DNA of 64,000 nucleotides. Source: Dipodascopsis uninucleata var. uninucleata. Its lineage: Eukaryota > Ascomycota > Lipomycetes > Lipomycetales > Lipomycetaceae. Shown here piece by piece: positions 35,235 to 58,880 of the stretch; the stretch's first letter is position 1; every line of letters begins with the position of its first letter. The stretch spans positions 62,001 through 126,000 of the forward strand of contig JAJLTO010000006.1 of assembly GCA_030568195.1 (NCBI GenBank). Reading direction: 5' to 3'. A program made the translations under genes and the position numbers. Under the pieces are notes generated by a model. That model ran no database searches, was not told the DNA's origin, and was given only the letters and a program-made list of their open reading frames with translations.

Positions 35235-36514
35235 GATGTTAAAATTATGTGATGGGTTTTGTAATAGAAAAATCAGACCAAACAAACAGCTCACCACGAA
35301 ACTCGGTATGATTTACTGTGCAATCTCCAGTTAAACGAGTATCACTTTCCTGGTAAAGTACAGACAACGCGCGTAATAAAATAGACTATACAAATATCAA
35401 TGTTAATAAGAATCCTATATATATATATATATATATATGTCTATCTATATATATCTGTATATGTATATATGCATGTAGAAGATAGAGACTGACTAAATAA
35501 AATACAAATAATTGTGCTGTCAAGTCGCTTTCTCGTTTCTAAGTTGTGCATATAAATTCTACAGTGACATATTTTTAGTAGCAGCAAACACTATATATAA
35601 TATACCTCGTATTACTATAAAATGCTATTTCTAAAGCTCGTTGCTGATTAATGATTAATCCTCAAAGATTTCGACAATAGTATCTTGTAAATAACTGGCA
35701 GATCCGACTAATAATGTTACGGTTTACTACCGCTTACTAATTATTCAATCACGTCCTTATTGCCGTGTTAAGTTTGACAAAATCGTCCGCTTTTACTAGA
35801 TCGATCTTCTCAATGAGTTACTCTTTAAGTCTCCGTTAAGTATATGAGATATACTATTCTGTTGTTTGATTTTACCGCTTTACTGATAGCCTTCAATTGA
35901 TCACTACACGCTATTTCTATATCCCTGCTACGTGCATTGGCATGTAGACGAAACCAGTCAACAATGCCCTAACATCAAAGATACTTAAAGAACCAAATAG
36001 AATGTGAGCCGCATATAACATATACCCTAATTTGTGTACATAGTAAGGCCAGTTGAGTGCGGCTGTATTATGAAACGGCATGAGAACGTGAAAGAGAAAA
36101 AATTTATCATATTAGAGTAACGTAATCGAAAGGCAGAGGTGACAACAGGACCGGAGAAAAGAAGCAGAAATACTGTTGTGACCATAGCTGAAGGAGTATC
36201 CATTGAATGAGTAAATATTAGGAGAGCAGAAATAAGGTTCTTATTCTTTTACGGAACTACGAAGATCCATTTTAACTCATTAGAAATCGAAGTTATTGAA
36301 TACAGCTCTAGTATAAAAAATCGAGGTCGAGAAAGGAGAGATCAGGCTTGGTCTTATAGGAAATAACTGGAACTAAAAGCCAAATAATATATTTTAATTG
36401 GGATTACAGTCAGCATATTGAGCTAGAGCATAATACGAAGCTATAAAGGACAGTCTTTATGTAAATTCGAGATCAAGGTTCGACGAAGCGCAAACAACCT
36501 ATAGGTCGTATAAA
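35235..36514. other. Divergent UBA1/MTR3 intergenic region
   Basis: About 1.3 kb upstream of both genes. It carries a long (TA)n tract at about 35416-35439 flanked by TATCTA-type repeats. No reading frame, RNA gene or mobile element is supported. Confidence 0.5.
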
Positions 36515-37468
36515 ATGTTGCTTTCGGATAGACGGAGAATCCTGGTACCGCCATCAGCGAGGCCATTGGCAGTTGTAGAGGATGAAAGTAGTCTTCAAGA
36601 AAGCACTAATAAGAATGACAGTAAGACTGGACATGACCGAGAAGATCTAGAGCGAGTTCAAAGAAATAAACTGTTTATTCGTGCTAGTTTAATAAGGGAT
36701 GCTGCAGGATCAGCGTATTTAGAATATAGAGGGCAAAAAATCCTAGTTTTGGTTTCTGGGCCGAGTCCAGTTAAGTCCCTTTTTTCTCCGACAGCAAAGC
36801 TGTCAGTAGATGTCAAATTCACTCCGTTCAGTGCTTCTGCAACTGGGAGCGCAACGAACGAGATTGGATTTGGATCAGCCGATTTAGAGCGCTCACTAGC
36901 TGATTTCGTGTTTACATCCATTAATCCTTCTATCCGTCTTGCACAGTATCCAAAATCTGGAATATCTGTTAATGTGATCGTAATTTCTAGCGGGTATTTG
37001 TCTAGTGGAGCACTTGCCAAGCAAACAGCTGCCTCGATCGTCACGGCAACGAGCATGGCATTGGTAGATGCTGGTATAGAATTGATTGATATTGTGACAA
37101 GTTGTGCTGTGAAATTTATTGGCTCCGTTTCTTCGCTGGATATAGATAGTGAGCCTAAATCATCTGAGCTGATAAATTCATCGTTGGGAACAGATGAGAT
37201 GAATGTCGATACCAGTTTGAACAGTTCAGCTTCAAGCACAATCCGAGGTGTGGTTAGCTACATGGCTAGTCGCGATGAGGTCACTGGATTTTGGATTGAC
37301 AGTATGAATACTCGAAGACAGTCCGATAGTGAAGGTGAGAAATATGATGCCTCATATATTGATGATAGAACTACTTTACAACTGGTCCAAATGGGTTGTG
37401 AAGGAGCAAAAGAGATCCGAAAAACAGTCAATCTTGCATTTATGCAGAAGCTGTCAAACGATTCTTGA
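36515..37468 (+). CDS. MTR3: RNA exosome core ring subunit, RNase PH fold
   Basis: Intronless, 317 aa. The start LLSDRRRILVPP, then LFIRASLIRDAAGSAYLEYR and ILVLVSGPSPVK, then ERSLADFVFTSINPSIRLAQYP and a helical ATSMALVDAGIELIDIVTSC segment, follow the Mtr3/EXOSC6 layout. Catalytic phosphorolytic residues are lacking, as in all eukaryotic ring subunits. Mtr3 helps form the six-subunit RNase PH ring that channels RNA to Rrp44 and Rrp6. A Ser-rich insert of about 40 residues near residues 205-245 lies before the last conserved strands. Rrp46 and Rrp43 were considered; the DRRRI start and the YLE pattern favour Mtr3. Confidence 0.85.
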   Translation: MLLSDRRRILVPPSARPLAVVEDESSLQESTNKNDSKTGHDREDLERVQRNKLFIRASLIRDAAGSAYLEYRGQKILVLVSGPSPVKSLFSPTAKLSVDVKFTPFSASATGSATNEIGFGSADLERSLADFVFTSINPSIRLAQYPKSGISVNVIVISSGYLSSGALAKQTAASIVTATSMALVDAGIELIDIVTSCAVKFIGSVSSLDIDSEPKSSELINSSLGTDEMNVDTSLNSSASSTIRGVVSYMASRDEVTGFWIDSMNTRRQSDSEGEKYDASYIDDRTTLQLVQMGCEGAKEIRKTVNLAFMQKLSNDS

Positions 37469-38205
37469 ATAGTTATTTCATGAAAAATAACGATTAGCAT
37501 TTATTTTTTGTTTAATTGAATTGCTTTACGGTACTATTAAAGCATCTAGAATCGATATCATAGTTAACGTCATTTGGCTCTGACTAACCGATAAACTAAG
37601 GATTGGAATAATGGAAACCAATCAATGTATTGCCACAAATATGGAAGTCATAGTAAAATCAAATAATTTGTTTCACTTTTGTAAATATATAAGAGCCTAA
37701 AATGAAGTATCAAAGACTATTCTAAGATAACATAGTAAAAAGCAAGTACATATAGTGGATTAAGTTAAAAGGTCAAGATTCGTAAGAAAAATGCACGATG
37801 CGTTTCTTTTCGAAATTGTATAATAATTGTTGATGTTCAACGATCTGCTAGCTTCAGACAAGACGATACCAAATCTCAGAAAAACAAAAATGACTCTAAA
37901 CAATAGCTAGTTTACTATTCCGCCAACATTGAAAATATAAAAATTATTAAGATAGAAAATAAATAAGAATTTTGTCGATAAAATAAATCCGAAAGTCGTT
38001 CGTAAAAGATAAACAGAGACTAGACTCAGCAACATCAGTTTACCAATACGCTCTTGAAGTGGCATGTAATGCGTATTTTCTGGCTATTCTTTCGTACTCA
38101 TTCGGTAAATTAAAGAGAAGAAGGTGTAATCAAAGAAAGAATCTATTCCGTCACGTATTTTTAGTTCTGGTATCTCCTTTTTCCTCGCAATCACGTCACG
38201 GAATT
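37469..38205. other. Intergenic, convergent MTR3/CHO2 3' ends
   Basis: A 737 bp AT-rich spacer. I looked here on the minus strand for the missing second half of CHO2 and found no long frame: only a 38-codon open stretch directly after the CHO2 stop in another frame, without transmembrane character or resemblance to Cho2. Confidence 0.6.
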
Positions 38206-39658
38206 CTATTTTGTTGTCTTTGGTACTGGTGGATATGTTTTAGCTATGTGCGGTTCCTCAACAAGGTAGAGGAAAGCAAACTGACAAGCATGTGCAGTTA
38301 GTGAAACAAAAAATAATGGCCAACTAGCAGCAATCAAAGAAATCCCATAGTATCCAACATATCCAACAGAGTACATGGGATGAGGAAAGAACTCAAAAAC
38401 TCCATCGAAGGAGAGCTCGAGATCCTCCAGGAAGAAAAAGTCACCCCAGTACCAAGCATAGTCCTTGACAACTCTATGGGCATCAAGCTTGACCCAGAGA
38501 TTGAACAAAAATAAGAAAACACCAACGGTCCATCTGGCAACATGCATCTTCATGCTCATCTGTGGAACATTAAAGCAGTAGCCGGCAAAGAGCATATACG
38601 ACACGAAGTCAGACATAAGGACAAAATCGACTAGCCGTCGGAACAGCAACCAGGTATTGTACTCAATAGGAACAGTCTCGAAATTATAGTCTATTCCCAT
38701 TTTCGAAGACAACTCTTGTCTAACTACATCATATAATTGCTTGCGGAGCATTGTTGCATTAGGACCAGGCTTGCTGAAAATCTTGGTCTTAGCAGCCCAT
38801 TTAGTGAGCTTTTTATTGAACGATTGTTGATATAAAAGATAGCCAAGACCACCATTGTACATCGATCTAGAGAGAGCATAAATGGCAAGGATAATCCATT
38901 TGCCATACTTAGATGGAAATGTTACAACTAAGAAGACATAAAAACTTAATAGCGACAGAGTCATAATATCAGCTGTGGACTTTGGCTGGCGAGGATCAAA
39001 CAAAGCCGAAACCATATCTTCGGTTCTTGGGACAGCAAATACTATAGGTACAAATACAAAAATGTTAGAATTATGTCACACAAATCAATTTTCAGCACCC
39101 GATAGCCATAATTCAACATTCTGCTGCTACCATTAAGCATTCTTTTAATTCATTGCATATCATGTTGTCCTTATGACGCTTTCCTTTCCTTTCTCTTCTG
39201 CACTGAAATATTCCGTTCTTACTCTACCTCTATTATATCCATTGTACTATCACTACACAACTCCAGGTCTCAGAATCCTTCAGATTAATATCTGAATGCT
39301 TTTCAGATAAGAATACAAAAAAATACTCACCAGAACCGTCGTTAGCTTTACCATAGGTGACTATATTAGATTCGTTCTTCAAATACTGGCTGACTTTGAT
39401 CTTTTTGAACTTCTGGAGCTGCACACCTTTCTGCATAAGATACGCCTTTCTCTGAGCATATTTCTTAGCAATGATTTCTTTGTTTGTCATAAGCTTCTTC
39501 TTCGATCTAATTAATAAAGATGCCTTAAATCCAGTTGTTGCTGCCTTAGACTCTGTCTGTATCACGCCTGTAGCTCCTGCCTTCAGATTCTGGTGCATAA
39601 CGATATCCTCCGACAACGCCGGAGATGGAAGCCGCGAACGAACTGGATCTGCTTTCAT
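38206..39658 (-). CDS. CHO2: Half-length phosphatidylethanolamine N-methyltransferase
   Basis: Two exons on the minus strand: 39331-39658 and 38206-39041, giving 387 aa. The join (289 nt intron, GTGAGT donor) gives GSVFAVPRTEDMVSALFDP, the conserved entry to the Cho2 membrane domain. Diagnostic blocks follow: NVWLIF-type NTWLLFRRLVDFVLM, NLWVKLDAHRVVKDYAWYW, GDFFFLEDLELSFDGVFE, HPMYSVGYVGYYG and the SAM-site segment LVEEPHIAKTYP. The stop comes nine residues later. Yeast Cho2 is about 870 aa with a second tandem methyltransferase domain and a soluble C-terminus; both are absent here. The enzyme converts PE to monomethyl-PE in the ER. About 105 basic, poorly conserved residues precede the domain. 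The start was set at the first ATG (39658). Confidence 0.9.
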
Positions 39659-40490
39659 AAGTGCGATTACTTCAATCAATCAATCAATCCTATATCTGTG
39701 ACAGAGACTTCCTTTTCACCCTTATTTCCTTCGCTATCCGTAGTATTCTGCGAGATTGAGTGCTCGTGACCCTCTTTTCTAAGCTGTCGACGCTAGGAAA
39801 AAGTTATTTGGGTTGGCTTTTCAGCTATCAATCACAGGCTCGTTTTCTTAGTAAAATTGCCTAGGTCCACCAAGTGCACTCAAAGTCAGGTTTAACCCTA
39901 ATATGGTATATTAATAATAAATTACGTAATAAATATAGTCACAAAATGGCATTACTGTAGCAGCAAGATATGTGAATGCTCTCAGCGATATATAGGAGAG
40001 AGAGAAATATCAGAGGATCGGAAGAAAAGAAACAAGGGAGACTGGAGCAAGCATAGGCACATACAGATGTATATCACGTTGCTTTGAGAAATTTACGTAA
40101 AAGTATGTATATATATATATTGTTTGAATGCTCGCAGCTCGGAAGATAGGTATTAATCATAATTAGAGGACGCTACAAAACAACCAGCCCGCTGCACTTT
40201 ACGAATCTGTGCTTTTTCCAGTAACAATAGAAGAAAAACAGAAGTGCTATATATACAAATATATATAATATATAATGTTGATAACCAAGTAAGCCAGGTG
40301 TAGATCGAAAATATAATAGTAGTTAGGCGAATGAAGTAAATAACTGACTCGATAAGAAATTGAGCACGCACAAAAAAAAATTTGAATTGTGTTCATTTTT
40401 CATAATCATCAGTATTTGGAGAAGATGGTAGAAACTTAGGATAAGAGAGGCCGAATCAATAAAAATAAATGCGTATCAGCTATAGCTTAT
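39659..40490. other. Intergenic between OPI3 and CHO2
   Basis: An 832 bp spacer holding the OPI3 3' UTR and CHO2 promoter, with an ATCA microsatellite (CAATCAATCAATC) near 39673. No perfect inositol-response element (CATGTGAA) was found; TATGTGAA at 39969-39976 is one base off. No gene. Confidence 0.5.
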
Positions 40491-41474
40491 CTACTCTTCT
40501 TTCTTTCCGCTAGCACGCTCACGGTCACGCTTAGCATATATCTCAGCTGTGAAGGGCCTAAAGTGATTAAAAAATAGTGTTAGTTACTCTGCTTGATCTG
40601 GAGCGCGATATGCATATCTCAAATACGTGACGCTGTAAACTTACTCTTCAAAACGTAGAGCAATGAGGTACATAACAAGAACCAAACCAGACAACACTAT
40701 GCCGGCAGGTTTAGCAAACCTAAATAGACAAATTCAGATTGTTAGATATATTAGACGAGCCGAAACTAGAACAATCAATACTTACCACAAGGCAGTGCCG
40801 AGGAAAGAAAGAAAGCTTCCATAATACATTGGGTTGTCGGTGATGTTGAAGGGGAATCCGGTTACTCGGGACTCCATCAAGATTCCAAAGTAATCACCTA
40901 GATATGTACCAGTGACACCAAGAGCCCACATGCTAGAGACAACAAGAACATTTCCATAAATAAAGCTGATTACTGCAAGAATCTTAACGGGAATAATACT
41001 CAATATCTCAAGGGTTGGCTGCTCACGAAGAGCTTTTTCGTACCTGTTGAGTTTCGAAATTTTAAGTGTTAGCTATAATGTTTGTGAATCGACAGAAAAT
41101 ATTAACATACAAGAAATCTCTTAAGATACCGAGAGAGAATATAGTTATGGCTAGGAAGTAGCATCCAAGTTTGGCATTGCCTCCAGCAAGTTTGGTGAGA
41201 ATATGAGTGCGATATTCTTTAGAGTATGTTATCAGCTACTTTTCTTATTATCTCATTACCATTATAAGAATATACCTGCTCTGGCCACAATATTCCAGAA
41301 AGTAGGATTAAATAGGATAGAAGCAGCAGAAACTGTGCGTTAAGCTACATTAGTAAGTGCGATCCCAGACAAACTATTTGATACTAATATAGGTTCAACC
41401 GATATTGTTCATGTTTACTCACTCGCTAGTGACAATTTCGAGAAGTCAACGAATTGTTCGCAGACGCAAGTCAT
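40491..41474 (-). CDS. OPI3: Phospholipid methyltransferase (PMME/PDME to PC)
   Basis: Six exons on the minus strand: 41423-41474, 41276-41332, 41111-41216, 40786-41043, 40645-40719, 40491-40557, giving 204 aa (yeast Opi3 is 206). Introns are 59-90 nt. Joined sequence follows Opi3 throughout: ILFNPTFWNIVARAEYRTH, GGNAKLGCYFLA, LYEKALREQPTLEIL, ALGVTGTYLGDYFGILMESR, VTGFPFNITDNPMYYGS, then ALRFEEPFTAEIYAKRD. Both SAM-binding segments (NPMYYGS and the RFEEPF acidic pair) are present, with about four hydrophobic spans. It carries out the last two methylations of phosphatidylcholine synthesis in the ER, on the product of CHO2, which lies 832 bp downstream on the same strand. Confidence 0.96.
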
Positions 41475-41924
41475 TTTATATATCTAGATATAGAATAATA
41501 GATCAGTGAAAGCTCTCGTCTCAAGTATTTTTTTTGAATATTCAGCCCTGTGAAGTTCTTCCAAGTGCATACTGGCTGACTATATTTGCCCCTTTTCTTC
41601 CATATGATTAGTAAAATTCAAACATACCTGTGAATTGAATCCCGCTTCAGGAATTTTAAATATATTTTGATTTTTTGGTAGATTTCTGAAAGTATACAAT
41701 TATTTAAAAGAGACGATTGGAAAAATTATATACTTTGATTGAATTTTCGTAGCGCCTCGAAACCCATCTTTCCTAGACTTACATTAAGATTTCGTAAGCA
41801 ACCCCTGCTCCGACGCGTGCTAGAGATTCATCGGCATCCACTTTTTATTGTCGCTCTCTGCGTTAGGAGATCTAGTAAGCCTGGATTCATATGTTACTGA
41901 TATTATTTACTACCCAGGTATTTA
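41475..41924. other. Divergent OPI3/RNH203 promoter region
   Basis: A 450 bp spacer with one ACGCGT box near the RNH203 side (listed separately). No gene. Confidence 0.5.
41813..41818. promoter_or_regulatory. ACGCGT (MCB) box upstream of RNH203
   Basis: A single perfect MluI cell-cycle box 107 bp before the RNH203 ATG. Its distance resembles that of the RFA2 boxes. Function is inferred from the MBF regulon of yeasts. Confidence 0.5.
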
Positions 41925-42680
41925 ATGACAAATTTAAATAAGTCAATGAGTTATGAGATTAAGGTCGGCGATGCAGAAAAAGTGTCAACTCATGTTATGC
42001 CATGCAAGATCTCGACCGAGGGTTCGATAAACAGCCGACAGTATTTTTTTGTCAATAGACAACAAGATGATTCAATTAAAGAATTTGATCTCGTCGTTAA
42101 TTCAGAAAGCACAAAGGATATACGTAATGAGCCGTCATTGAAAGATACAAAGAGCTTGGAGCAGCCAGATACAAATCTACTGATGTCAGATTCAGATGAA
42201 CTATATATCACGTACTTTAGGGGCAGAAGACTTGTCGGACAAAAGCTAGATTTTGAAGACAAATACGAAGGTAAGTTGGCTATACGGTATACCTGATATG
42301 CTATTATTTTGTATAGTTCTAGCAATGAACTATCGCAATTCAGTCATTGATTCTTTTTTCAATGGGATAGGTCTCGTATTACCGCCATCATCATCTGCTA
42401 CGACAAAAGAAATAAATTACAAGTGTGAGATGATTGGAGAAGATCAGGAGGACGAGTCTCATATGGATATCAAAGATTGGGGAGTGGCATATAAATTCAA
42501 AGATATGTATGTGTGGGATCAAGACACAGCTCCTGATACGACTATGAATCCCTGGATATCATCGATACAGGAATGGATGTCCTTTTCAGAAATGGTAAGT
42601 AAGCATTCTGTAGTTGATATAAGTAGTGTTACATGATTAGATATCTAATAAGCAAATAGATGCATAACTTGGAAGATTGA
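41925..42680 (+). CDS. RNH203: Ribonuclease H2 subunit C
   Basis: Three exons: 41925-42270, 42317-42594, 42660-42680, giving 214 aa. The hallmark YFRGRRLVGQKLDF matches the RNase H2 C-subunit (Ylr154c/RNASEH2C) family. The C-terminal DMYVWDQDTAPDTTMNPW segment, followed by WMSFSEMMHNL, matches its fTvWgHe...W..lae.iH end. The second intron (65 nt) leads to a 21 nt final exon coding MHNLED plus stop. The subunit is noncatalytic and supports the enzyme that removes ribonucleotides from DNA and resolves RNA-DNA hybrids. It converges on the F-box gene with 246 bp between stops. Yeast Rnh203 is only 110 aa; the extra length here is an N-terminal extension and a middle insert. Confidence 0.82.
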
Positions 42681-42926
42681 ATACTATAACGCAAACGTTG
42701 ATGAATGGAAAGGCTATCTAGATTGTTATCATATGTTTAATATATTAATTGGTTACTTCTTATTTGATGCTCATTTCGCCAAATGCTACCTTTGTAAAAT
42801 AAAAGGTCTTCTGAATTGCCAATACGCATTGAATGTAAATTAAAAATCTATCAATGCACTGGTTATATTACTTCAGTTGGCCAAAATCCATAGGTTGTCC
42901 CAATCAGCCCAGACTTGTCTCGCCTT

Positions 42927-44973: not shown

Positions 44974-47900
44974 CTAATTTTTATTCTTGCTCTTAAGATC
45001 CAGTATCTGGTGCTCTAAAATACTTAATTTACTCTCATAGTCTCGTCGTAAGTCTTCAGTCTCCTTTTCAGCAGAGGAAAGCTTCATTTGCAATTTTATT
45101 ATCTGACTCTGATCACTTGTCAATTGTGAGTCAGCTGAGTTATCACCGAAGTGGCCCTTAGTGTACTTGTCCAAAGCTACGAGTTGCATTGATGCATATT
45201 TCTCGCGTAGTTCCTTTACTTCAGCTGCCGCACTGCTAACATCTTTTAATCGTCTTTGCAGAGCTTCTATCTCTGCATCCCTGTCTATTAGTTTGGATTT
45301 CAATGTCTCCTTCTCTGCCTTAGTCATCTTCAAATTTTCACGAACAGATTCCTCTTCCGATTTCCAAGTTTCTCTCTCTGCCTTCAAATCTCTGTTCTTT
45401 TGCAGTAGTTGATTTGAATATTTCGCACGGTCGGTGGCCAATCTTGATAAAGATTCATGTTGCTTGCGTGCTTCGGTTTGGAGACGGTTGATTTTTGTCT
45501 GGAGCATACGATTGGAGAGTAATAAGCCTTGAACATTGGCATCGTCTCGAACTAACGTAGAAAACTGCTCTTTGACTTGTCGTAGATTTCGAAGACGGAG
45601 CTGTTTCAGATATCGCTCGAAATTCAGTTCATTCCTGAGCATCAAATTTTGTCGTTGAAGGATCTCCAACTTACGTTGAAGTTGGGTTTTGCCTGTAGCT
45701 TTTCCTCCAGATTTTCCTCCAGAAGCATGCAAATTGAAAGAGTCTTCGGTCAGACCAACTGTTAAAATGAGTGGATCAGAGATAGTACGAGCTGGTCCAA
45801 GCTGCATGTAACTCAACGGACTTGATATATTCTGCACTCGGGATGTAACTGGTGGAGACAAAGGCTGTGATCTAACTGACGAAATTGGTCCTAAGGAGGG
45901 TGACCTCAGTTCAGTCTTCAGTTCAGTCTTTGGCTCAGTTCGTTCACTACGAGAGCTTACTCTGCTGAGTGGGGATGTTACCCCTTCGGTCACTGTATCT
46001 CCTGAAACTGCATGACTATGGCTCCCCGATAAAGAGCTTGGTGTCCTCTTGTGAGATGCATGTAAAGAAACCTGTGGCATAGTAGAAGAACTCGTCTCAT
46101 CACTTGTGGAGGCGCGTCGAGGCGCGATTCGGCCGCTATTAATATCCTTATGATTCTCCAAAATAGCAGTTATATCTTCACTGGTGCTCTTCTGGACTAG
46201 TTTCCCGGTTGACGCCGGAGTCGTTTCTATACTATTATTGAAAGACGATACAGAAGCCATCAGAGGAGTGAATGACTTCACCTTGCCATCTATAGAAACT
46301 ATTGATTTACGCCTAAGGAGAGCGTCATCCTGATTTGACCCACTTACATGGACTGAACCGGACTCAGAACCACTAGGGTGGTCATAACTGACGTCATTCG
46401 ATGCGAAAAGAAAGCTATCTGAAGATAAATCATCAGGCGCATATAACTCATTAGGAGCAGAGTGAACGGAATCGTCATGGTGTTTGAGCTCCTCTGACGG
46501 AAGATTACCGTCTAGGGAAAGATAGACAGGATTTTGGTCAGTCGATTCAACCTGGTCATGAAAGCCCCTAAATATGACAGCGGGTTCATCAATTTCGGGC
46601 ATCTCCAGATTTCCAGTATCAAGTGTAATACAGTAAGCAGCAATTTCTTCAGCAGTTCCTGCCAAGTCCCATCTTTGAGGATCAGTTACCTCTGTCTCAA
46701 AAGTATACCTAAAAAAGTTTGGGTGAACTAAATGTCTCTTGGATAAATTCTGAGATCTTAGTGAAATATCATCTATATCGTACTTTATATAATCAGAAAG
46801 CTCGAGACCACGAATTCGAAAATATCTTCGGGGATTGGTAAGAAATGTTAAAAACTGTATAGGATAGGTGCCATAAATAAATGTGAAAAGCTTTGAATAG
46901 TTGACCGGAGTTGGCTCTATTTCACTAGAATCTTCAAGAATCTGCCATTCAGTCTCAGCAACAGTACTTATCTTCGACTCGATTACAGTGTCTGGTCCAA
47001 GGCGCTTTCCATCTGGATCATCGTAGTAGTAATAGCCGCCATATGGATCGTCATGGTCAAACTTTCTTAAATCAGCAGCTTTTTTGTCTTTACTCGAGGC
47101 CGGTCTAGGTTCATCAGGTGCAATATCGCTAAGACTAGGTAACGCTGATAGCTCTTCATCATTCTGCTTATTATAAAGAATATCCCAATATATAAGTCTA
47201 GAATATACAGAAAATACTCTCGGGAGTTGAGGACCCAAAACACTGCAAAAATATGGAATTAAAATGACAAATATTGTTGATGCAATGTTAATAGCGACAG
47301 TAGAACGATCAAGAAGGAGGCATTGATATAAGTGACTAACCAGCTCTGTACTATGAGTTTCAAATAGATAGGGCGGCTGAGACTGTACAAATGTACAAAG
47401 CAACTGAAGCACCAATATTCGATATTTTGGCTTCACAAAGTATTTGTCAAGTGCATTAAAAAAATGCTTTGGTCGACGCTGGCCAAATTGTCGCAATAAT
47501 ATTTCAGCATTATGATCAACGACGACCTGACGTTCGCTGTCATTAAAATCTCCTGAAGTTGAATCGTTGTGACTTTGCTTACTAAAATGTAATTTCTTTC
47601 TACCGATGTAGATCTGAACCAAGAGGTCCGCAACGGCAGCCGATAGCTTTTCACGTTCTTTCAAAAACCTGTCATTGTCATCTGATCCATGAACCATCAC
47701 CATCAATAGGAACTGACGCGCACTATCGACTACAATACGATACTTTCCAGAAGAATCTAGTGCAGTTATTAGAAAGATCTCAGCCCAATACGCAAGCGAA
47801 TCACGACAAGCAATCAAATTAGCCCCAATCTCCAAGAGAACATTAGTAAAAAGTGCTAACTTTGCCATATCATTCTTGACATGATTCTTATAAACGCTGA

Positions 47901-48156
47901 CTAGTTCATCATGAAGTCTTTGTGCATCGCTGGTGTCCGCTTCATCATGCTTTCCAAGATAAGCTGAAATATTGTCTGACAGATTTGATGGGATATCAAT
48001 TCGCTGGATATCAAAATCATTTATTTCAGAAGAGTCAATAGCACTTGCTAATGCCTTCGCAAAATCACGTAAAGACCTTATGAGAATTTTATTAGTATTT
48101 GATTATTTATTCCAAAAGAAATTAATCGATAATAAGTAGTTCACGAACCCTGACAT
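44974..48156 (-). CDS. TSC1: Hamartin (TSC1) homologue
   Basis: Two exons on the minus strand: 48149-48156 (8 nt) and 44974-48076, giving 1036 aa. The N-terminal 350 residues are helical and HEAT-like, with the hamartin pattern at YLFETHSTELVSHLYQCLLL and the IPYFCSVLGPQLPRVFSVYS, RLIYWDILY blocks. A low-complexity Ser-rich middle (about 480-760) and a long C-terminal coiled coil (about 785-1030, rich in Leu, Glu and Lys heptads) follow, as in Tsc1. With Tsc2 it forms the GAP that restrains Rheb and TORC1. The first coding exon (MSG) has a GTTCGT donor, weaker than others here, and is inferred from phase and lack of another ATG. A 12 nt unit is repeated twice at 45907-45930 (KTEL). Confidence 0.78.
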
Positions 48157-51669: not shown

Positions 51670-54600
51670 TCAAGTTTGCTCGGTCTCAGATTCCTCTGCC
51701 GAACGAGTCTCATCTACCATAAACCAGCCATCGTCCTTCTCTGACGCCTTCTTACTTTCATTGATCTCATCATTATCCTTACTACTGATTGAACGAATAA
51801 GACTTCTAGCATAATGAATGTCACGGTAGATCGTCTCCACAGCAGTAGCAACGCCATTTTCTTTCTGAATTTGCTCTCCAATCAGTCGAGCTTTTGCAAT
51901 AATTCGTTCATTATGAGTAGCTTCCCACAACGCTTTTGCGAATTGGCGAGTAGTCAGTTTCTTTAAATGAATTCCAGCACCCAAGTCCTCAACACGACTA
52001 GCGTAAAAGAATTGGTCTCCAAAAAATGGCTTGATCACTGTTGGAACACCTGCTCGGAGGCTCGCCCCCGTTGTTCCAGACCCACCATGATGGACAGCTG
52101 CATCTATTTGTGGGAATAGCCAATCATGTGGAGCAGACTTTATCTGGTAAATAGAGTCACTGGGAATAGGAACCTCTGTCTTATGCGCATCAGGATTGTT
52201 AAGACGATCTGACCATCCTTTGGATAGAATACACCGAACATCGGCCTTTATCACGGACTCAACAACTGCTTGTGTAAGCTCACGAGGATGAGCTACCACT
52301 ATAGATCCAAATCCAATATATACCAGTTTCTTTCCATCACTTCTGGCATCTTGGATAAACTTCACGAGATTTGGATCAGGTTCATACGTATTTCCTCCCT
52401 CATCTAAGAACCAATAACCAGTAACTTTAATCCAATCTGAGTAGTCCAATGGTGGCGGCACCACCGTAGGTGAAAAATTATAGAGAAATGGCACTTTATT
52501 CTGCTGCATCTTTTCAAGATTAGTCCGAGGTAAATGAAGGGTATGAATTCTCCATTTATTAACTTGACCAGATATCCCTTTCCAGAATACATTGTCAAAC
52601 ATGACGTATGTAAAATAATTGTATGATCCACCCATTTTCTGTTCTGGGACAGCAAATGCGTGCGGATATGCCCTCGTTCTCGTCCATGGCATTGTAAATG
52701 CACGTATATAAGGGATGCGAAGTGCTTCAGCTATATGAAGTCCCGCCATAGCAGATGGGGATTCAATGAGGACATCAGATCCCTGACAAGCAACCCAGGA
52801 AGTCTCAAGAAGATCAGAAATCCACCCTCTAAATTTTGTCGATGCTTCTTTCAAGAAAGAGTACGTAAACATACCATGCTCCACGCTAATACGCATAAGT
52901 TCTGCAGGGTCACCCGCAATTGCGTGAAATTCTATACCGTGACCTTCAACCCAATCCTTGAATTCCACATGAGTTGCAATACGAACACGATGACCATCAG
53001 CCATTAAGCCTTTTGCCAAAGCAATATACGGTTGAACATCCCCTCGTGAGCCAATTGTCAGACAAGTGAAAAGATACTTTTCTACAGGCTTTATCGAGAT
53101 GTCTTTCAGCAGTCGGGAAGATTCAAATATGAGTGGAGTGGTGTCAAATATGTCACGGCTACGAAGCAATCGACGTTCAGCTCGTAATATGCTCTGCTTC
53201 TTTTTTTTATTACTCTTGATTAATGAGCACTCCTCAGGGGTAGGTACAGGCGTGCCTACCTGATCATCTGCAAGAGTACGATATTCTTCTAGCTCCCGTA
53301 ACAAGGTGACTGCGCAGTCATCACGAGTTTCTGCGGATCGAAACTCAAAGAATATTTCCTCGTGGCCATGTATCACGACTACAAGACCAGAATAACCAAA
53401 TCTAAACCCTCGTTCCTTCTCTGCGTTCTCTAAGTCTTGATAAGGTAGGATCATCTTAGTTTTAGTCCCTGGTAACAGAGAACGGAAACATAAGTGCCTG
53501 TTTCCAAGATATATTTTGCCATACAATGGGAGTACTCGGTGCAGATAACCATAAAAGCTTGCCACCAGTCTTTCTGAATCCGGAAGCGAGAAGTGAGTAC
53601 GAAATCTTTCCGCACTTTCCTTATCAGACTCAGTGGCTTCGTTCTCTGCATCATGTTCTTCCATACTTCCAGGAGAGCGGCCATCAAAATGCTTCGAATT
53701 ACCGATCCACATTTCAGTTACTTTACCGACATATTGCGTAGGAACATTTACAGTAGGTAGCAAACTTTGAACCTTTTTACTACCTTTCTTGACCCAATCA
53801 GACCAGTTATTATCTCTAGATCGCGAAATTAGGGTGTTATCAGACGAGGCCGAGACTATATCAGCATCATTCACAAAATTATTTTCGCCATCTCCACTTA
53901 ATAAATGGTTATCCGATATCGAGTTCCTTCTCGATAAATGATTACTCCGTGAAAGCGGTCGGACTATTGGTGAACTAGACTGACTTACAGCAACCTCTAC
54001 CATATCCTCGGAAGTATCTGTAAGAGGGGTTCTAGTAGAGATTTCCAAACTTCCTTTCTTTTCTCCTGCTGTTATAAGATCTATCACTTTACCTCCTATA
54101 GCCTTTAAGGGACTTGAAGAACGTTTCCATGAACTTCCAGTTGATGAAGAACGATGCACAGGCTTAGGTGACTTTATCCTAGGTGAAGTTCTATCATTTT
54201 CAGCAGGTATCTGTAGTGACTGCTGATTATTGCTTGATACTGGTGGATTAGACGATCGTCCACGAAGAAATCCTGACCGATTTGGTGAGGTAGGACTTGA
54301 ACTTGCAGGAGATTTTATAGGCTCTAAATGACTAAGAAGCTTAGCTGATGGTCTTCCACTACTCTCAGTGGAATCTCTGATTGGCTCTGTATGTGGACGA
54401 GTAATGAAATCAGATTTAGCCGGATCAGTTTCTGCACCATTATCATCATCACCATAAACCGATCCGCTGTAATAGTTAGTCGCCTGACTATTGATATGAT
54501 CATCTGTAGGACCATATTTGACTAAGTTGCACAGATCAGTAAATGCTTCTCTACCATTACTGAAGAAAGAAAAAAAATATTCATCAATAGTGTATGTAAC

Positions 54601-56241
54601 CTCATCGTTATCAGCATCAACTGCTTTAATTTTGAAAGTATCTGCGCAGTCAAGGAAGGGCGACTCTTCGACGTCAATAATGTTCTCAGATGGAATCACA
54701 ATCTTAACAGAATCGCCATCATTATGTGCTCGAAAGATTGCACGCTGTAGAGCTTTTATCCATTCCTGAGCGAAAATGTAGGAGTCGGCCTTGAATTGAT
54801 GCTTTCTTGTCTGAGTGTGAATGACAAATGCTACCGGATTTCCACCAGCAGTCTCTTCTGTAATATCAATATCAGCAAATTCCACACTTTGCGCGTAACG
54901 TAAGTCTATTGACCCGACAGGAAAGTATAGGTCAGACGCAGAGTTGTAGTATGATAATACATTATCTCTGATAACACACCAAAATCGTGAATATCTAGTT
55001 GTTGTTCTGTTTCTCTTGCTTAAACTCCCAGATTTCAAAACTGAATTTGTCTTATGCGGAACATAGGCGAAAAATGATACATGGCTCTGAGTAATGAAAA
55101 GATGGCCCTGTAATAGTACACTTTTTAAGAGATAACATGGATATTCAGCAATGACATCTTCACGCTGTGAGAAGCCAAAAACTTTCATTAATTTCTCTGA
55201 TAGGAGGCTTGAACGTGAAGCTTCAACAGACGAAGAAGCAAGAGACTGCGAGTCCGTAGTATCGTCCGCAAGGCGAGAACTGCGAGTAGATACTGCATCT
55301 TGCGAATCTCCTGAAGTATGCTTTGATGTCGCATCATTAGCGGCAGTAGATAATAAAAAGGAAGAGGCCATTGGAACCAAGGGAGCGCTATGTTGTCTTC
55401 TAGGTCGAAGGGTGGCTGATCCCGACCCGGACAACTCTTCAGAAGAGTCACGAAGTTGGCCGCTTAAAGATGTAGCTTTTGTCGGAGCAACGCTCATTGT
55501 AGCAAACTGATCGCTAATTCTTTGACCACCTAGGTCACTCTCAATGCTATCACTACTAGTGGCAGCATGACCAGCACGATCGTGAATTTCTCTATTTACT
55601 TCAGCATCAATTTCAGCATCAATTTCAGTATCAATTCCCCTTTCCTCCTCTTCCGAGTCCTCAGTATCATCGTCATCATCATCACCTTCCAAGTCCTCGT
55701 CAGAAGCAAGTTTAGAGAACTTTGCACGCGACGCTGCGGTGATCAGCGAAAATACCGAGCGTCCGAGGTTAGATGGCCGTGCGACATCAACAGACGATTG
55801 GCGCTTGACTTTAGCACCGGAACGGCTGGAAAGCATTTTGCGGCCTCTATCTGGAGACCAGAGATCTGGCTGAGTTTGTGCAAGATCCTCTTCATCGTCA
55901 GTTCTTGTGCCAGTATTCGTGTTTACACCACTAGCGGACTCATCAGCATCAGATACGTTGGAGTTGTGTCGAGAGTGGTTGCCGCGACCCAAACGACCAG
56001 CTTTCGATAAAGCAGTCGAAGGCGACGGTAAAAAGGAGGATATTGACATTAATTGGTTCTTTGCCTTTGCAGACGGAGATAATGACTCCTTTCTCGGCGA
56101 GTTAGTGTTGCCATTATCGCTGTTGTGAGGACTACTGCGACCAGGTTTAAGTGTAGAGACGTCGTCTTCGGAACCGGAATATAGTACGGAACTATGCGGC
56201 AAAGACAATTCAGTCCGTTCCTGAGGTGAACTACTTGGCAT
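51670..56241 (-). CDS. ATG26: Sterol 3-beta-glucosyltransferase
   Basis: Intronless, 1523 aa; an in-frame stop lies upstream of the ATG. Layout: a disordered Ser- and Asp-rich N-terminus (1-345), GRAM (from about 350, LMKVFGFSQREDVIAEYPC), PH domain inserted in it (about 400-500, RYSRFWCVIRDNVLSYY), a second disordered stretch (570-870), second GRAM (about 880-990, GYLHRVLPLYGKIYLG), then the GT1 catalytic domain with TIGSRGDVQPY (about 1057) and the sugar-nucleotide motif AVHHGGSGTTGASLRAG (about 1383). It transfers glucose from UDP-glucose to ergosterol; the GRAM and PH domains recruit it to PI4P membranes, and in some fungi it serves pexophagy. A 12 nt repeat at 55601-55635 codes EIDA units. 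Confidence 0.96.
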   Translation of the reverse strand: MPSSSPQERTELSLPHSSVLYSGSEDDVSTLKPGRSSPHNSDNGNTNSPRKESLSPSAKAKNQLMSISSFLPSPSTALSKAGRLGRGNHSRHNSNVSDADESASGVNTNTGTRTDDEEDLAQTQPDLWSPDRGRKMLSSRSGAKVKRQSSVDVARPSNLGRSVFSLITAASRAKFSKLASDEDLEGDDDDDDTEDSEEEERGIDTEIDAEIDAEVNREIHDRAGHAATSSDSIESDLGGQRISDQFATMSVAPTKATSLSGQLRDSSEELSGSGSATLRPRRQHSAPLVPMASSFLLSTAANDATSKHTSGDSQDAVSTRSSRLADDTTDSQSLASSSVEASRSSLLSEKLMKVFGFSQREDVIAEYPCYLLKSVLLQGHLFITQSHVSFFAYVPHKTNSVLKSGSLSKRNRTTTRYSRFWCVIRDNVLSYYNSASDLYFPVGSIDLRYAQSVEFADIDITEETAGGNPVAFVIHTQTRKHQFKADSYIFAQEWIKALQRAIFRAHNDGDSVKIVIPSENIIDVEESPFLDCADTFKIKAVDADNDEVTYTIDEYFFSFFSNGREAFTDLCNLVKYGPTDDHINSQATNYYSGSVYGDDDNGAETDPAKSDFITRPHTEPIRDSTESSGRPSAKLLSHLEPIKSPASSSPTSPNRSGFLRGRSSNPPVSSNNQQSLQIPAENDRTSPRIKSPKPVHRSSSTGSSWKRSSSPLKAIGGKVIDLITAGEKKGSLEISTRTPLTDTSEDMVEVAVSQSSSPIVRPLSRSNHLSRRNSISDNHLLSGDGENNFVNDADIVSASSDNTLISRSRDNNWSDWVKKGSKKVQSLLPTVNVPTQYVGKVTEMWIGNSKHFDGRSPGSMEEHDAENEATESDKESAERFRTHFSLPDSERLVASFYGYLHRVLPLYGKIYLGNRHLCFRSLLPGTKTKMILPYQDLENAEKERGFRFGYSGLVVVIHGHEEIFFEFRSAETRDDCAVTLLRELEEYRTLADDQVGTPVPTPEECSLIKSNKKKKQSILRAERRLLRSRDIFDTTPLIFESSRLLKDISIKPVEKYLFTCLTIGSRGDVQPYIALAKGLMADGHRVRIATHVEFKDWVEGHGIEFHAIAGDPAELMRISVEHGMFTYSFLKEASTKFRGWISDLLETSWVACQGSDVLIESPSAMAGLHIAEALRIPYIRAFTMPWTRTRAYPHAFAVPEQKMGGSYNYFTYVMFDNVFWKGISGQVNKWRIHTLHLPRTNLEKMQQNKVPFLYNFSPTVVPPPLDYSDWIKVTGYWFLDEGGNTYEPDPNLVKFIQDARSDGKKLVYIGFGSIVVAHPRELTQAVVESVIKADVRCILSKGWSDRLNNPDAHKTEVPIPSDSIYQIKSAPHDWLFPQIDAAVHHGGSGTTGASLRAGVPTVIKPFFGDQFFYASRVEDLGAGIHLKKLTTRQFAKALWEATHNERIIAKARLIGEQIQKENGVATAVETIYRDIHYARSLIRSISSKDNDEINESKKASEKDDGWFMVDETRSAEESETEQT
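55601..55635. repeat. 12-nt tandem repeat inside ATG26
   Basis: About three copies of a TTCAGCATCAAT-type unit (minus strand: EIDA) in the acidic part of the disordered N-terminus. The period is a multiple of three, so copy changes would keep the frame. Confidence 0.8.
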
Positions 56242-58880
56242 TATTGTCGATATCCAGTTGATATTTTGCCGAAGTTGAAGAAGTCTAAGCGGCTAGATAT
56301 GAAGCAAACGACGGCTGATGATAGTAGTACAAGTTTGTCGGCCGATTGCCACCAGAAAGAAGTCGATAATAGTAATTTATTAAATCCGACCGAGTAGGTG
56401 CCTGTTATACAGTTGAAATATATAAATGCGTAACAGTGCTAACACTCATATGCCGAGGCGATAAATATAGTGATAGATGATTGTGGCAGTGATCTAGTTT
56501 AGATATATTTAGCTGTGAAGTAACGTCAATCCAGAGATTGAAAATACTGAATGATGTGCTATGAAGCCAGATCTCTAAAAGTCCGACATGAGACGCTCAA
56601 AATAGCAAACAGAAATCCAACTGAAACGTGACTTTGAAACCGTAAAAATTTTGAAGATAAGATCCGCACGCAGTTCAAAATGGTCTCGTTCCTTGGGCGT
56701 AGCAACTGACTGGCTGAGATCGCGATTTCAAGACAAATGTAAAAGAGCCGTAATCTCGACTTAAAAACACATCTGCTGGAAATATAAGCATATAAAATTG
56801 CACTGGATATTTTCCTTATAATTCAGATACGTATCGGCTGAAGTTGTAGACATTTGTCAAATTAGTTGGGTAGATGAAATTGATCAGTCAAAAGAGTTAG
56901 TCGTCGTTGACGTCGACAACACTTTTTTAGCGATCGCGGCTCACTTTCACCTGGCTGCTAGTAAGCAGATATCAGCGTCTATCTTTCTACGAACTAAACC
57001 TATAAATAAACGGACCTTTTATGGAGAAGCACTGGTTCAACTTTTGGTTTAGATAGGCGTATTAAGAATAAAAGTAGGGTACAGACTACAAGAATTGTTA
57101 TAAGTAGGTAGTCGTCTATCTGATAAGGTCCATCCATTATTTTTATTTGATGACTGTGCTCTATTCATTTCTCAGAATACTCGGCACTAAAGGCTCGCTT
57201 TCTTCAACGTTATAGCAGAAAATTTTCAGCGATATTGAAGACTTGCGCGTACGTACTATACTGTACTTGCTTTGCTGTCTAGTATGGTGCACGACAGTTT
57301 GTTGTTCTGCTCTGCTTGCCAATTTTAGTCTGATTCAGTCTTTTGCTGTGAGATATTGGTTCCCTAAACACCTCGTTACGGCTGGCGAGCAGTTGATTAG
57401 GAAAATAACATCACTTTCTTCAGCCAGAAATTTTCGTTTCGTCCATCCTCCGCGCAACTCATACAAGTAGTCCCAAACATTTTGATTTCAGCCCTTAGTT
57501 ATCTTTCCATTAAGTTCACGATACCGAATGGGTAGCTGGTAACGTCTGACGTGCCTCGGCTCTCTCAGGGACCGTCGTCAGATTTGCCCCTAGACATTTG
57601 CAATCGCACCCCTTACACCCTAAATATGCGTGTACATTTCCGTTAGAGGCATATTCGTATGTTATGGTGCGGAGTTACTCCATATAGTAATACCCACCGC
57701 ACGACATATGTTCTGCTATTGCCATACAGTTAGCACCATATTGCCGTCCCTGCAGAGTCCTCGTACAAGGCTACCTCAAACACAGATATATACATCATAT
57801 ATCGGGTAAGGGCTAATTTTAAAAATTTGAAGCATGTGTTTTAAGTAATATCTTACTTAATGTTTAGAGAGCACAAAATAGCGACGATATCGCGGCTGAG
57901 GTAATCGGGAGAAGAGCTTGAGTACCTCGGGAAGACTAGACAGGATGCGGAGAAGGTTTACAATGAAGACCAGATGCTGGCTACAGATTTGAAGTGCGGA
58001 TGAACATAAACAAATACCGTACGGACGAAAGGGATTGGGGATTGGATAGGTGATTGGCAGGTGCATTCAATTAGTTTTGGCTGTGCGGAGAACAAGATCT
58101 CAAGTTTGCGTAATAATTGAGTCATAGATAGTTTAGCGTGCTTTGGGGCAGTTACTTGTACGCAAGCTTCGTGCATAGTGTGGAGAGTATAAATCTATAT
58201 ATATATGCAATACATGTGAATATGGAGCAATGGAATTATGGAGTACATAGCCGCTAGAATTGCCATGAGCTGCACTTCCTGGGGAGTTTCCGTTGTACCG
58301 TCCGGAGCCGGTGCGGAAAGGATGTACCGACATAGGTAATTTTCCGACGGATCTAATCTGCATATTCTGCATCACAGTACCGAGACAGAGACTGTTTACC
58401 GAGTATGGGCCCGAGTTTTGCCTATATTCGTGTAGCAGCAAACTTTCCGATTAGAATTTATAGCACTGGCGATGGTCGTAGTCCTAATGATCTCGTGAAA
58501 CTAGCCGGGCATGGACTGGTTGACAATGTGAACTTAAGCTCAAGACGACATATGTGTGTAGTGCGTAGGGAGCAGCATTTGTGGGGGGCTAGGAGAGAGG
58601 GGCCGAGGAGGGGAAGTGATAGTAGTACGAAATATCCGGTGGGATAGCGTGCAGGGCCACATTAGGATACATGACCGAACGCCATGAAGCTATCCTAATT
58701 GCAGTGACTTGAAATGAGATCAGACCCGTTTGCCTTATGTAATGATTTTGGTTCCATAATGTTGCTATGTTGTAAGCACTAGCATAATCTTCCTCGCACT
58801 ACACGTTGCTGCGCCAGCGATGGCATACTGCTAATGTATTCCCTAATTCGGTTGTCAAACTTCCGTCAACCAGTAATGGA

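What the first reader, a model, noticed from the sequence alone, without database searches (positions are those of the whole stretch)
38206..39658. CHO2 reduced to its first methyltransferase domain
The protein matches yeast Cho2 through the first PEMT domain, including both SAM-site segments (HPMYSVGY and LVEEPHIAKTYP), and then stops nine codons later. Cho2 proteins normally carry a second tandem PEMT domain and a soluble C-terminus, about 450-500 more residues. I read the 700 bp downstream on the same strand and found no continuation or decayed remains. This looks like a natural one-domain Cho2, which would show that domain 1 suffices for PE methylation, or that a partner (perhaps OPI3 next door) supplies the rest.
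Basis: partly seen in the sequence, partly recalled or inferred. Interest (0 to 1): 0.75.

Follow-up and report, generated by a model that had tools for sequence, protein, structure and literature searches.

The report
Yeast Cho2 with only domain one
In this probably yeast DNA, the gene for the enzyme that starts turning one membrane lipid (PE) into another (PC) appears to encode only the first half of the usual protein, ending cleanly after its first methyltransferase domain; if no second half exists elsewhere in the genome, it would help show which half of the enzyme does the work.

Summary
A two-exon gene on the minus strand (39658-39331, 39041-38206; 289-nt intron) encodes 387 residues: a Cho2 N-terminus plus one complete PEMT domain (PF04191, E = 4.5e-21, profile 3-103 of 105). 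It is 41% identical to S. cerevisiae Cho2 residues 12-319 (yeast sequence recalled). The stop is the ninth codon after the conserved EEPHIAKTY, where the Cho2 linker would begin. The 737 bp to the next, convergent gene hold no detectable remains even allowing frameshifts (61 of 100 shuffles score as high). Among 2626 stop-to-stop frames of the window, the second half of Cho2 matches only domain 1 itself. OPI3 lies next door, intact over its resolved exons. A natural one-domain Cho2 is therefore the preferred reading, but it is not proven: the genome is not held, no fungal relatives could be searched, and there are no transcripts or reads. A separate second-half gene, a full-length copy elsewhere, or a misjoin remain possible. 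A single-domain PE methylator is known (mammalian PEMT), so the novelty lies within the Cho2 family: a new variant of a known kind.

The parts
39331..39658 (-). CHO2 exon 1: N-terminal extension, first 109 codons and one base
   Evidence: hexamer coding score 0.368
39042..39330 (-). CHO2 intron, 289 nt, GTGAGT...TTCTAAC...CTATAG
   Evidence: splicing predicted from the sequence, restores the Cho2 frame (SVFAVPRTEDM)
38206..39041 (-). CHO2 exon 2: membrane region and first PEMT domain, with stop TAG 38208-38206
38227..38529 (-). PEMT domain (protein residues 280-380), with HPMYSVGYVGYYG and VEEPHI segments
   Evidence: (Pfam PF04191), alignment; coordinates converted from residues
37469..38205 (-). 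737-bp downstream tract without detectable second-half remains
36434..37468 (+). Convergent neighbour with RNase PH domain (exosome-type)
   Evidence: PF01138, 3.1e-17
40491..41332 (-). OPI3, five exons read by eye (41332-41276, 41216-41111, 41043-40786, 40719-40645, 40557-40491); first exon(s) not resolved

Best explanation
This is a genuine CHO2 orthologue that has lost everything after its first PEMT domain. It most likely still works as the membrane phosphatidylethanolamine N-methyltransferase of the pathway: domain 1 binds SAM and PE, makes monomethyl-PE, and the neighbouring OPI3 enzyme completes PC. The second PEMT domain and the soluble C-terminal (CoCoA/SKICH-like) domain were removed by deletion or rearrangement at the domain boundary, not by a fresh nonsense mutation. 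Shown: gene structure as predicted from sequence, complete domain 1, clean end, no detectable remains nearby, OPI3 intact over the resolved exons. Inferred: catalytic activity, absence of a second half elsewhere, and loss by deletion.
For: Complete PEMT domain. 41% identity over the Cho2 N-terminal half, with the run WVKLDAHRVVKDYAWYWGDFFFLE unchanged. Both SAM-site segments kept, with an EE pair as in both Opi3 proteins, where recalled yeast D1 has EN and recalled yeast D2 has ET and HPEA in place of HPMY. Open frame with a coding hexamer score up to the stop: last 150 nt 0.389, exon 2 overall 0.336 in frame against -0.31 and -0.361. No GT donor of the forms scanned in the last 150 nt of the CDS. 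No second-half similarity downstream even with frameshifts or in the 2626 frames of the window. Precedent: mammalian PEMT does all three PE methylations (PMC12139422, passage).
Against: The genome is not held, so a separate second half or a full-length copy cannot be excluded. The Cho2 proteins whose domains I saw described, A. oryzae PemA and yeast Pem1, have two PEMT domains (PMC11111764, passages). No relative was found in the two collections scanned (viral and prokaryotic, so expected), hence no test of selection or of a shared short form. Two 150-nt downstream stretches have hexamer scores (0.458 minus, 0.477 plus) slightly above the best of the other non-coding tracts (0.431) and above three of five CHO2 exon-2 segments (0.15-0.23); neither gives Cho2 similarity. 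The single-sequence AlphaFold model failed (mean pLDDT 40.8).
Confidence: 0.58

Rival explanations
1. Split gene: the second PEMT domain and C-terminus are encoded by a separate gene elsewhere in the genome, and the two products assemble into a Cho2 of the usual kind.
For: The end lies at a domain boundary, as expected of a viable split; a rearrangement would leave no remains next door, as seen.
Against: No second half among the frames of the 64 kb window. No precedent known to me.
Confidence: 0.14
2. Fragment: this is a partial duplicate of CHO2, and a full-length copy elsewhere does the work.
For: Cannot be excluded without the genome.
Against: The copy has its own intron, an intact frame, intact motifs and an OPI3 neighbour, with no sign of decay.
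Confidence: 0.12
3. Assembly misjoin or sequence error at or near the stop hides a normal CHO2.
For: Only one assembled sequence was available; no reads.
Against: A simple base or frame error is excluded as the whole cause, since no second half follows in any frame; a misjoin would have to fall at the domain boundary. The repeats found around the end are short, 14-24 nt.
Confidence: 0.09
4. Inactive relic: the truncated protein no longer methylates PE; OPI3 alone or the Kennedy pathway supplies PC.
For: Activity of a lone Cho2 domain 1 has not been shown in anything I read. From general knowledge, Opi3 has some activity on PE.
Against: 387 residues of open frame with conserved motifs and 41% identity suggest selection on domain 1, though no close relative was available to measure it.
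Confidence: 0.07

Closest known systems
Cho2/Pem1 of ascomycetes (S. cerevisiae YGR157W; A. oryzae PemA, 971 aa)
   Same: N-terminal membrane region and first PEMT domain, 128 of 310 identical to the recalled yeast protein over residues 12-319
   Different: Lacks the second PEMT domain and the C-terminal CoCoA/SKICH-like domain; 387 residues instead of 869 (recalled) or 971 (PMC11111764, passage)
Opi3/Pem2 and mammalian PEMT (single-domain phospholipid methyltransferases)
   Same: One PEMT domain; EE acidic pair in the second segment, as in the two Opi3 proteins aligned
   Different: The sequence is of the Cho2 domain-1 type: recalled yeast Opi3 matches this locus only at E = 0.040, recalled yeast Cho2 at 3.4e-61; a separate OPI3 is next door

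Membership tests
Cho2 (class II phospholipid methyltransferase) | Cho2-type N-terminus and first PEMT domain | tested here: met
   (yeast yardstick recalled)
Cho2 (class II phospholipid methyltransferase) | Second tandem PEMT domain | tested here: not met
   One PEMT stretch in the protein, none downstream or elsewhere in the window except OPI3; recalled Sc Cho2 gives two stretches
Cho2 (class II phospholipid methyltransferase) | C-terminal soluble domain (CoCoA N-terminal-like; SKICH) | tested here: not met
   Absent from the protein and not found in the window; domain described in PMC3153492 (passage)
Cho2 (class II phospholipid methyltransferase) | Catalyses PE to monomethyl-PE | not testable with these tools
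   Needs an enzyme or complementation assay
Opi3/PEMT single-domain (class I) | Opi3-type sequence | tested here: not met
   Opi3 matches this locus at E = 0.040 only; Cho2 matches with 41% identity
PEMT domain family (PF04191) | Complete PEMT domain with both SAM-site segments | tested here: met
   that the segments bind SAM is recalled

The most novel reading that the evidence does not exclude
A natural, functional one-domain Cho2 in which domain 1 alone performs the first PE methylation. It would show that the second PEMT domain and the C-terminal domain, present in yeast and Aspergillus Cho2, are not needed for catalysis but serve regulation or assembly, possibly replaced here by self-pairing or by pairing with the neighbouring OPI3 product.
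Probability: 0.4. Interest if true: 0.65.

Novelty: new variant of a known kind. Interest (0 to 1): 0.48.

Why it matters
A 2024 study states that the catalytic mechanism of Cho2 is still unknown even in S. cerevisiae (PMC11111764, passage seen). It is not clear why fungi use a two-domain enzyme for one methyl transfer when mammalian PEMT does all three. A working one-domain Cho2 from nature would be a minimal enzyme for structure and kinetics and would assign catalysis to domain 1. It would also separate catalysis from whatever the second domain and the CoCoA-like C-terminus do.

Tried and rejected
Considered and rejected: (1) splicing past the stop into a second half: no GT donor of the forms scanned (GTRNG, GTRAG, GTATG) in the last 150 nt of the CDS (weaker donors not scanned) and no target in the window. 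(2) Decay of the second half in place: the tract is 737 bp and has no detectable similarity. Against this, a hexamer scan gave two 150-nt downstream stretches of apparent coding score (0.458 minus, 0.477 plus), slightly above the best of the other non-coding tracts (0.431); neither gave Cho2 similarity, and the test separates poorly at this length (three of five exon-2 segments score 0.15-0.23). (3) The missing half between OPI3 and CHO2 (39659-40490): nothing in the stop-to-stop searches.

Led nowhere: scans of viral and prokaryotic contigs (9 and 31 pattern matches, none confirmed); PDB sequence searches with this protein and with recalled Opi3 (no match up to E = 10); NCBIfam (two matches far below cut-off, best E = 0.039); tRNA scan of the window (none); repeats around the locus (6 direct families and 12 inverted pairs, all 14-24 nt, nothing telling at the stop); a crude hydropathy scan, too coarse to count helices; single-sequence AlphaFold of exon 2 (mean pLDDT 40.8, pTM 0.26, so no fold search was made); scan for the inositol/choline element TYTTCACATG (17 matches with up to one mismatch against 13.8 expected, none between 29615 and 43638).

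Literature: ten searches (two searches returned no paper; the lists were cut at 20 of 30, 15 of 3434, 15 of 20 and 8 of 9). None of the listed titles or abstract starts describes a one-domain Cho2. I saw passages only of PMC9865325, PMC3153492, PMC8982615, PMC11111764 and PMC12139422. This is no proof that it is not in print; subscription journals are mostly not held.

Errors corrected: one search scored exon 2 out of frame (-0.363); one search repeats it in frame (0.336). Output was cut in the middle, so statements on absence rest.

Full report
What was checked. The finding lies on the minus strand of a 64 kb window with 38.8% GC. I read 35500-41500, listed open frames, and rebuilt the gene: exon 1 39658-39331, a 289-nt intron with GTGAGT donor and CTATAG acceptor, exon 2 39041-38206, 387 residues.

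What the protein is. Pfam gives one PEMT domain (PF04191, E = 4.5e-21, residues 280-380, profile 3-103 of 105), so the domain is complete, not cut. It is therefore Cho2 domain 1 with the Cho2 N-terminus. The recalled sequence behaves as expected: 869 residues, two PEMT stretches and a weak, below cut-off SKICH match, and it contains the DWIGLYKV motif that PMC3153492 reports in the Cho2 C-terminus (passage seen). It remains a recalled sequence.

How it ends. The last aligned residue is the Y of VEEPHIAKTY; eight residues follow, then TAG. In the recalled yeast protein 550 residues follow: linker, second PEMT domain, C-terminal domain. The coding signal continues to the end: the last 150 nt score 0.389, exon 2 as a whole 0.336 in frame against -0.31 and -0.361 out of frame, with 150-nt segments from 0.15 to 0.6.

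What lies downstream. The next gene (RNase PH domain, plus strand, 36434-37468) converges on CHO2 and leaves 737 bp. A frameshift-tolerant alignment of recalled Sc Cho2 320-869 to this tract scores 36, and 61 of 100 dinucleotide shuffles score as high; for 38205-36434 and for 36433-34980, 20 of 40 shuffles each. As a control, the same query against exon 2, an ancient paralogue at 22% identity, scores 113 with 0 of 100 shuffles as high, so an orthologous second half should be seen. In 2626 stop-to-stop frames (15 aa or more) of the whole window, a PEMT profile finds only CHO2 exon 2 and three OPI3 frames (next best E = 1.4), and the second half of Cho2 finds only exon 2 (1.3e-8; next 0.53). The profile and query rest on recalled yeast sequences together with the window's own. 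Two downstream 150-nt stretches have hexamer scores slightly above other non-coding tracts (0.458 and 0.477 against 0.431); I have no explanation for them and no match to Cho2.

OPI3. It lies upstream on the same strand, with its stop at 40493-40491, 832 bp before the CHO2 start codon. Five exons were read by eye, supported by tblastn with recalled yeast Opi3 (three pieces, E = 9e-47) and Pfam (PEMT 7.7e-23 for the longest exon); the first exon or exons were not resolved.

Motifs. In an alignment of five PEMT domains the window's D1 has HPMYSVGYVGYYG and VEEPHI; yeast D1 HPMYSIGYLGYYG and VENPHI; yeast D2 HPEAVLGVVGVWG and IETPHV; both Opi3 proteins NPMY and EEPF. So the retained domain carries a full form of the motifs and the lost one, in the single yeast sequence compared, the most altered. 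That the two segments bind SAM is recalled knowledge.

Organism. UBA1 matches yeast E1 chains best (3cmm, 4nnj, 5tr4; 1484-1486 bits) ahead of 4ii2 (1424.5 bits); that these are S. cerevisiae and S. pombe is recalled. Of nine CTG codons in UBA1, five face leucine in that alignment (codons 533, 689, 866, 951, 957), none serine, one each alanine, isoleucine and aspartate, and one lies outside it (read by eye), so CTG most likely reads as leucine. Introns, a hamartin (TSC1) gene and a sterol-glucosyltransferase-like gene fit an early-branching ascomycete yeast; this is inference, and I could not name it. No whole genome is held.

Mechanism. Most likely domain 1 is the catalytic unit, makes monomethyl-PE in the membrane, and OPI3 finishes PC. 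In yeast Cho2 makes the first methyl transfer and Opi3 the next two, and mammalian PEMT does all three (PMC12139422, passage); that mammalian PEMT has a single domain is general knowledge. PMC11111764 (passages) states that A. oryzae PemA (971 aa) is predicted to have two methyltransferase and ten transmembrane domains, features conserved in yeast Pem1, that A. niger Cho2 (1077 aa) differs from PemA by a large C-terminal stretch, and that the catalytic mechanism of Cho2 is unknown. So the C-terminus varies in length among fungi, but I saw no loss of domain 2. Against my reading stand the lack of genome, reads, transcripts and fungal relatives, and a structure model that failed (mean pLDDT 40.8).

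Verdict. A real, clean, one-domain CHO2 locus; the strong claim (domain 1 suffices) is a good hypothesis that a genome search and one complementation test could settle.

Noticed in passing
41904-42633, plus strand: Two overlapping open frames each match part of RNase H2 subunit C (PF08615, profile 2-60 and 70-132), so one gene with an intron or a frame break between them.
   Followed up: partly
44980-48102, minus strand: Hamartin (TSC1) homologue (PF04388, 4.2e-12), a gene that S. cerevisiae lacks (recalled).
   Followed up: no
51676-56292, minus strand: GRAM/PH/glycosyltransferase 28 protein like the sterol glucosyltransferase Atg26 (the name Atg26 is recalled).
   Followed up: no
39331-39658, minus strand: The Cho2 N-terminus has 109 residues before the conserved core, rich in lysine, against 32 in the recalled yeast protein.
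   Followed up: no
39659-42900: No match to the inositol/choline element TYTTCACATG (one mismatch allowed) around OPI3 or CHO2, although yeast regulates both genes through such elements (recalled).
   Followed up: partly
38206-41332: OPI3 and CHO2, consecutive steps of one pathway, are neighbours on the same strand, 832 bp apart.
   Followed up: no
37469-38205: Two 150-nt stretches, one on each strand, have hexamer coding scores slightly above other non-coding tracts of the window without any protein match found.
   Followed up: partly
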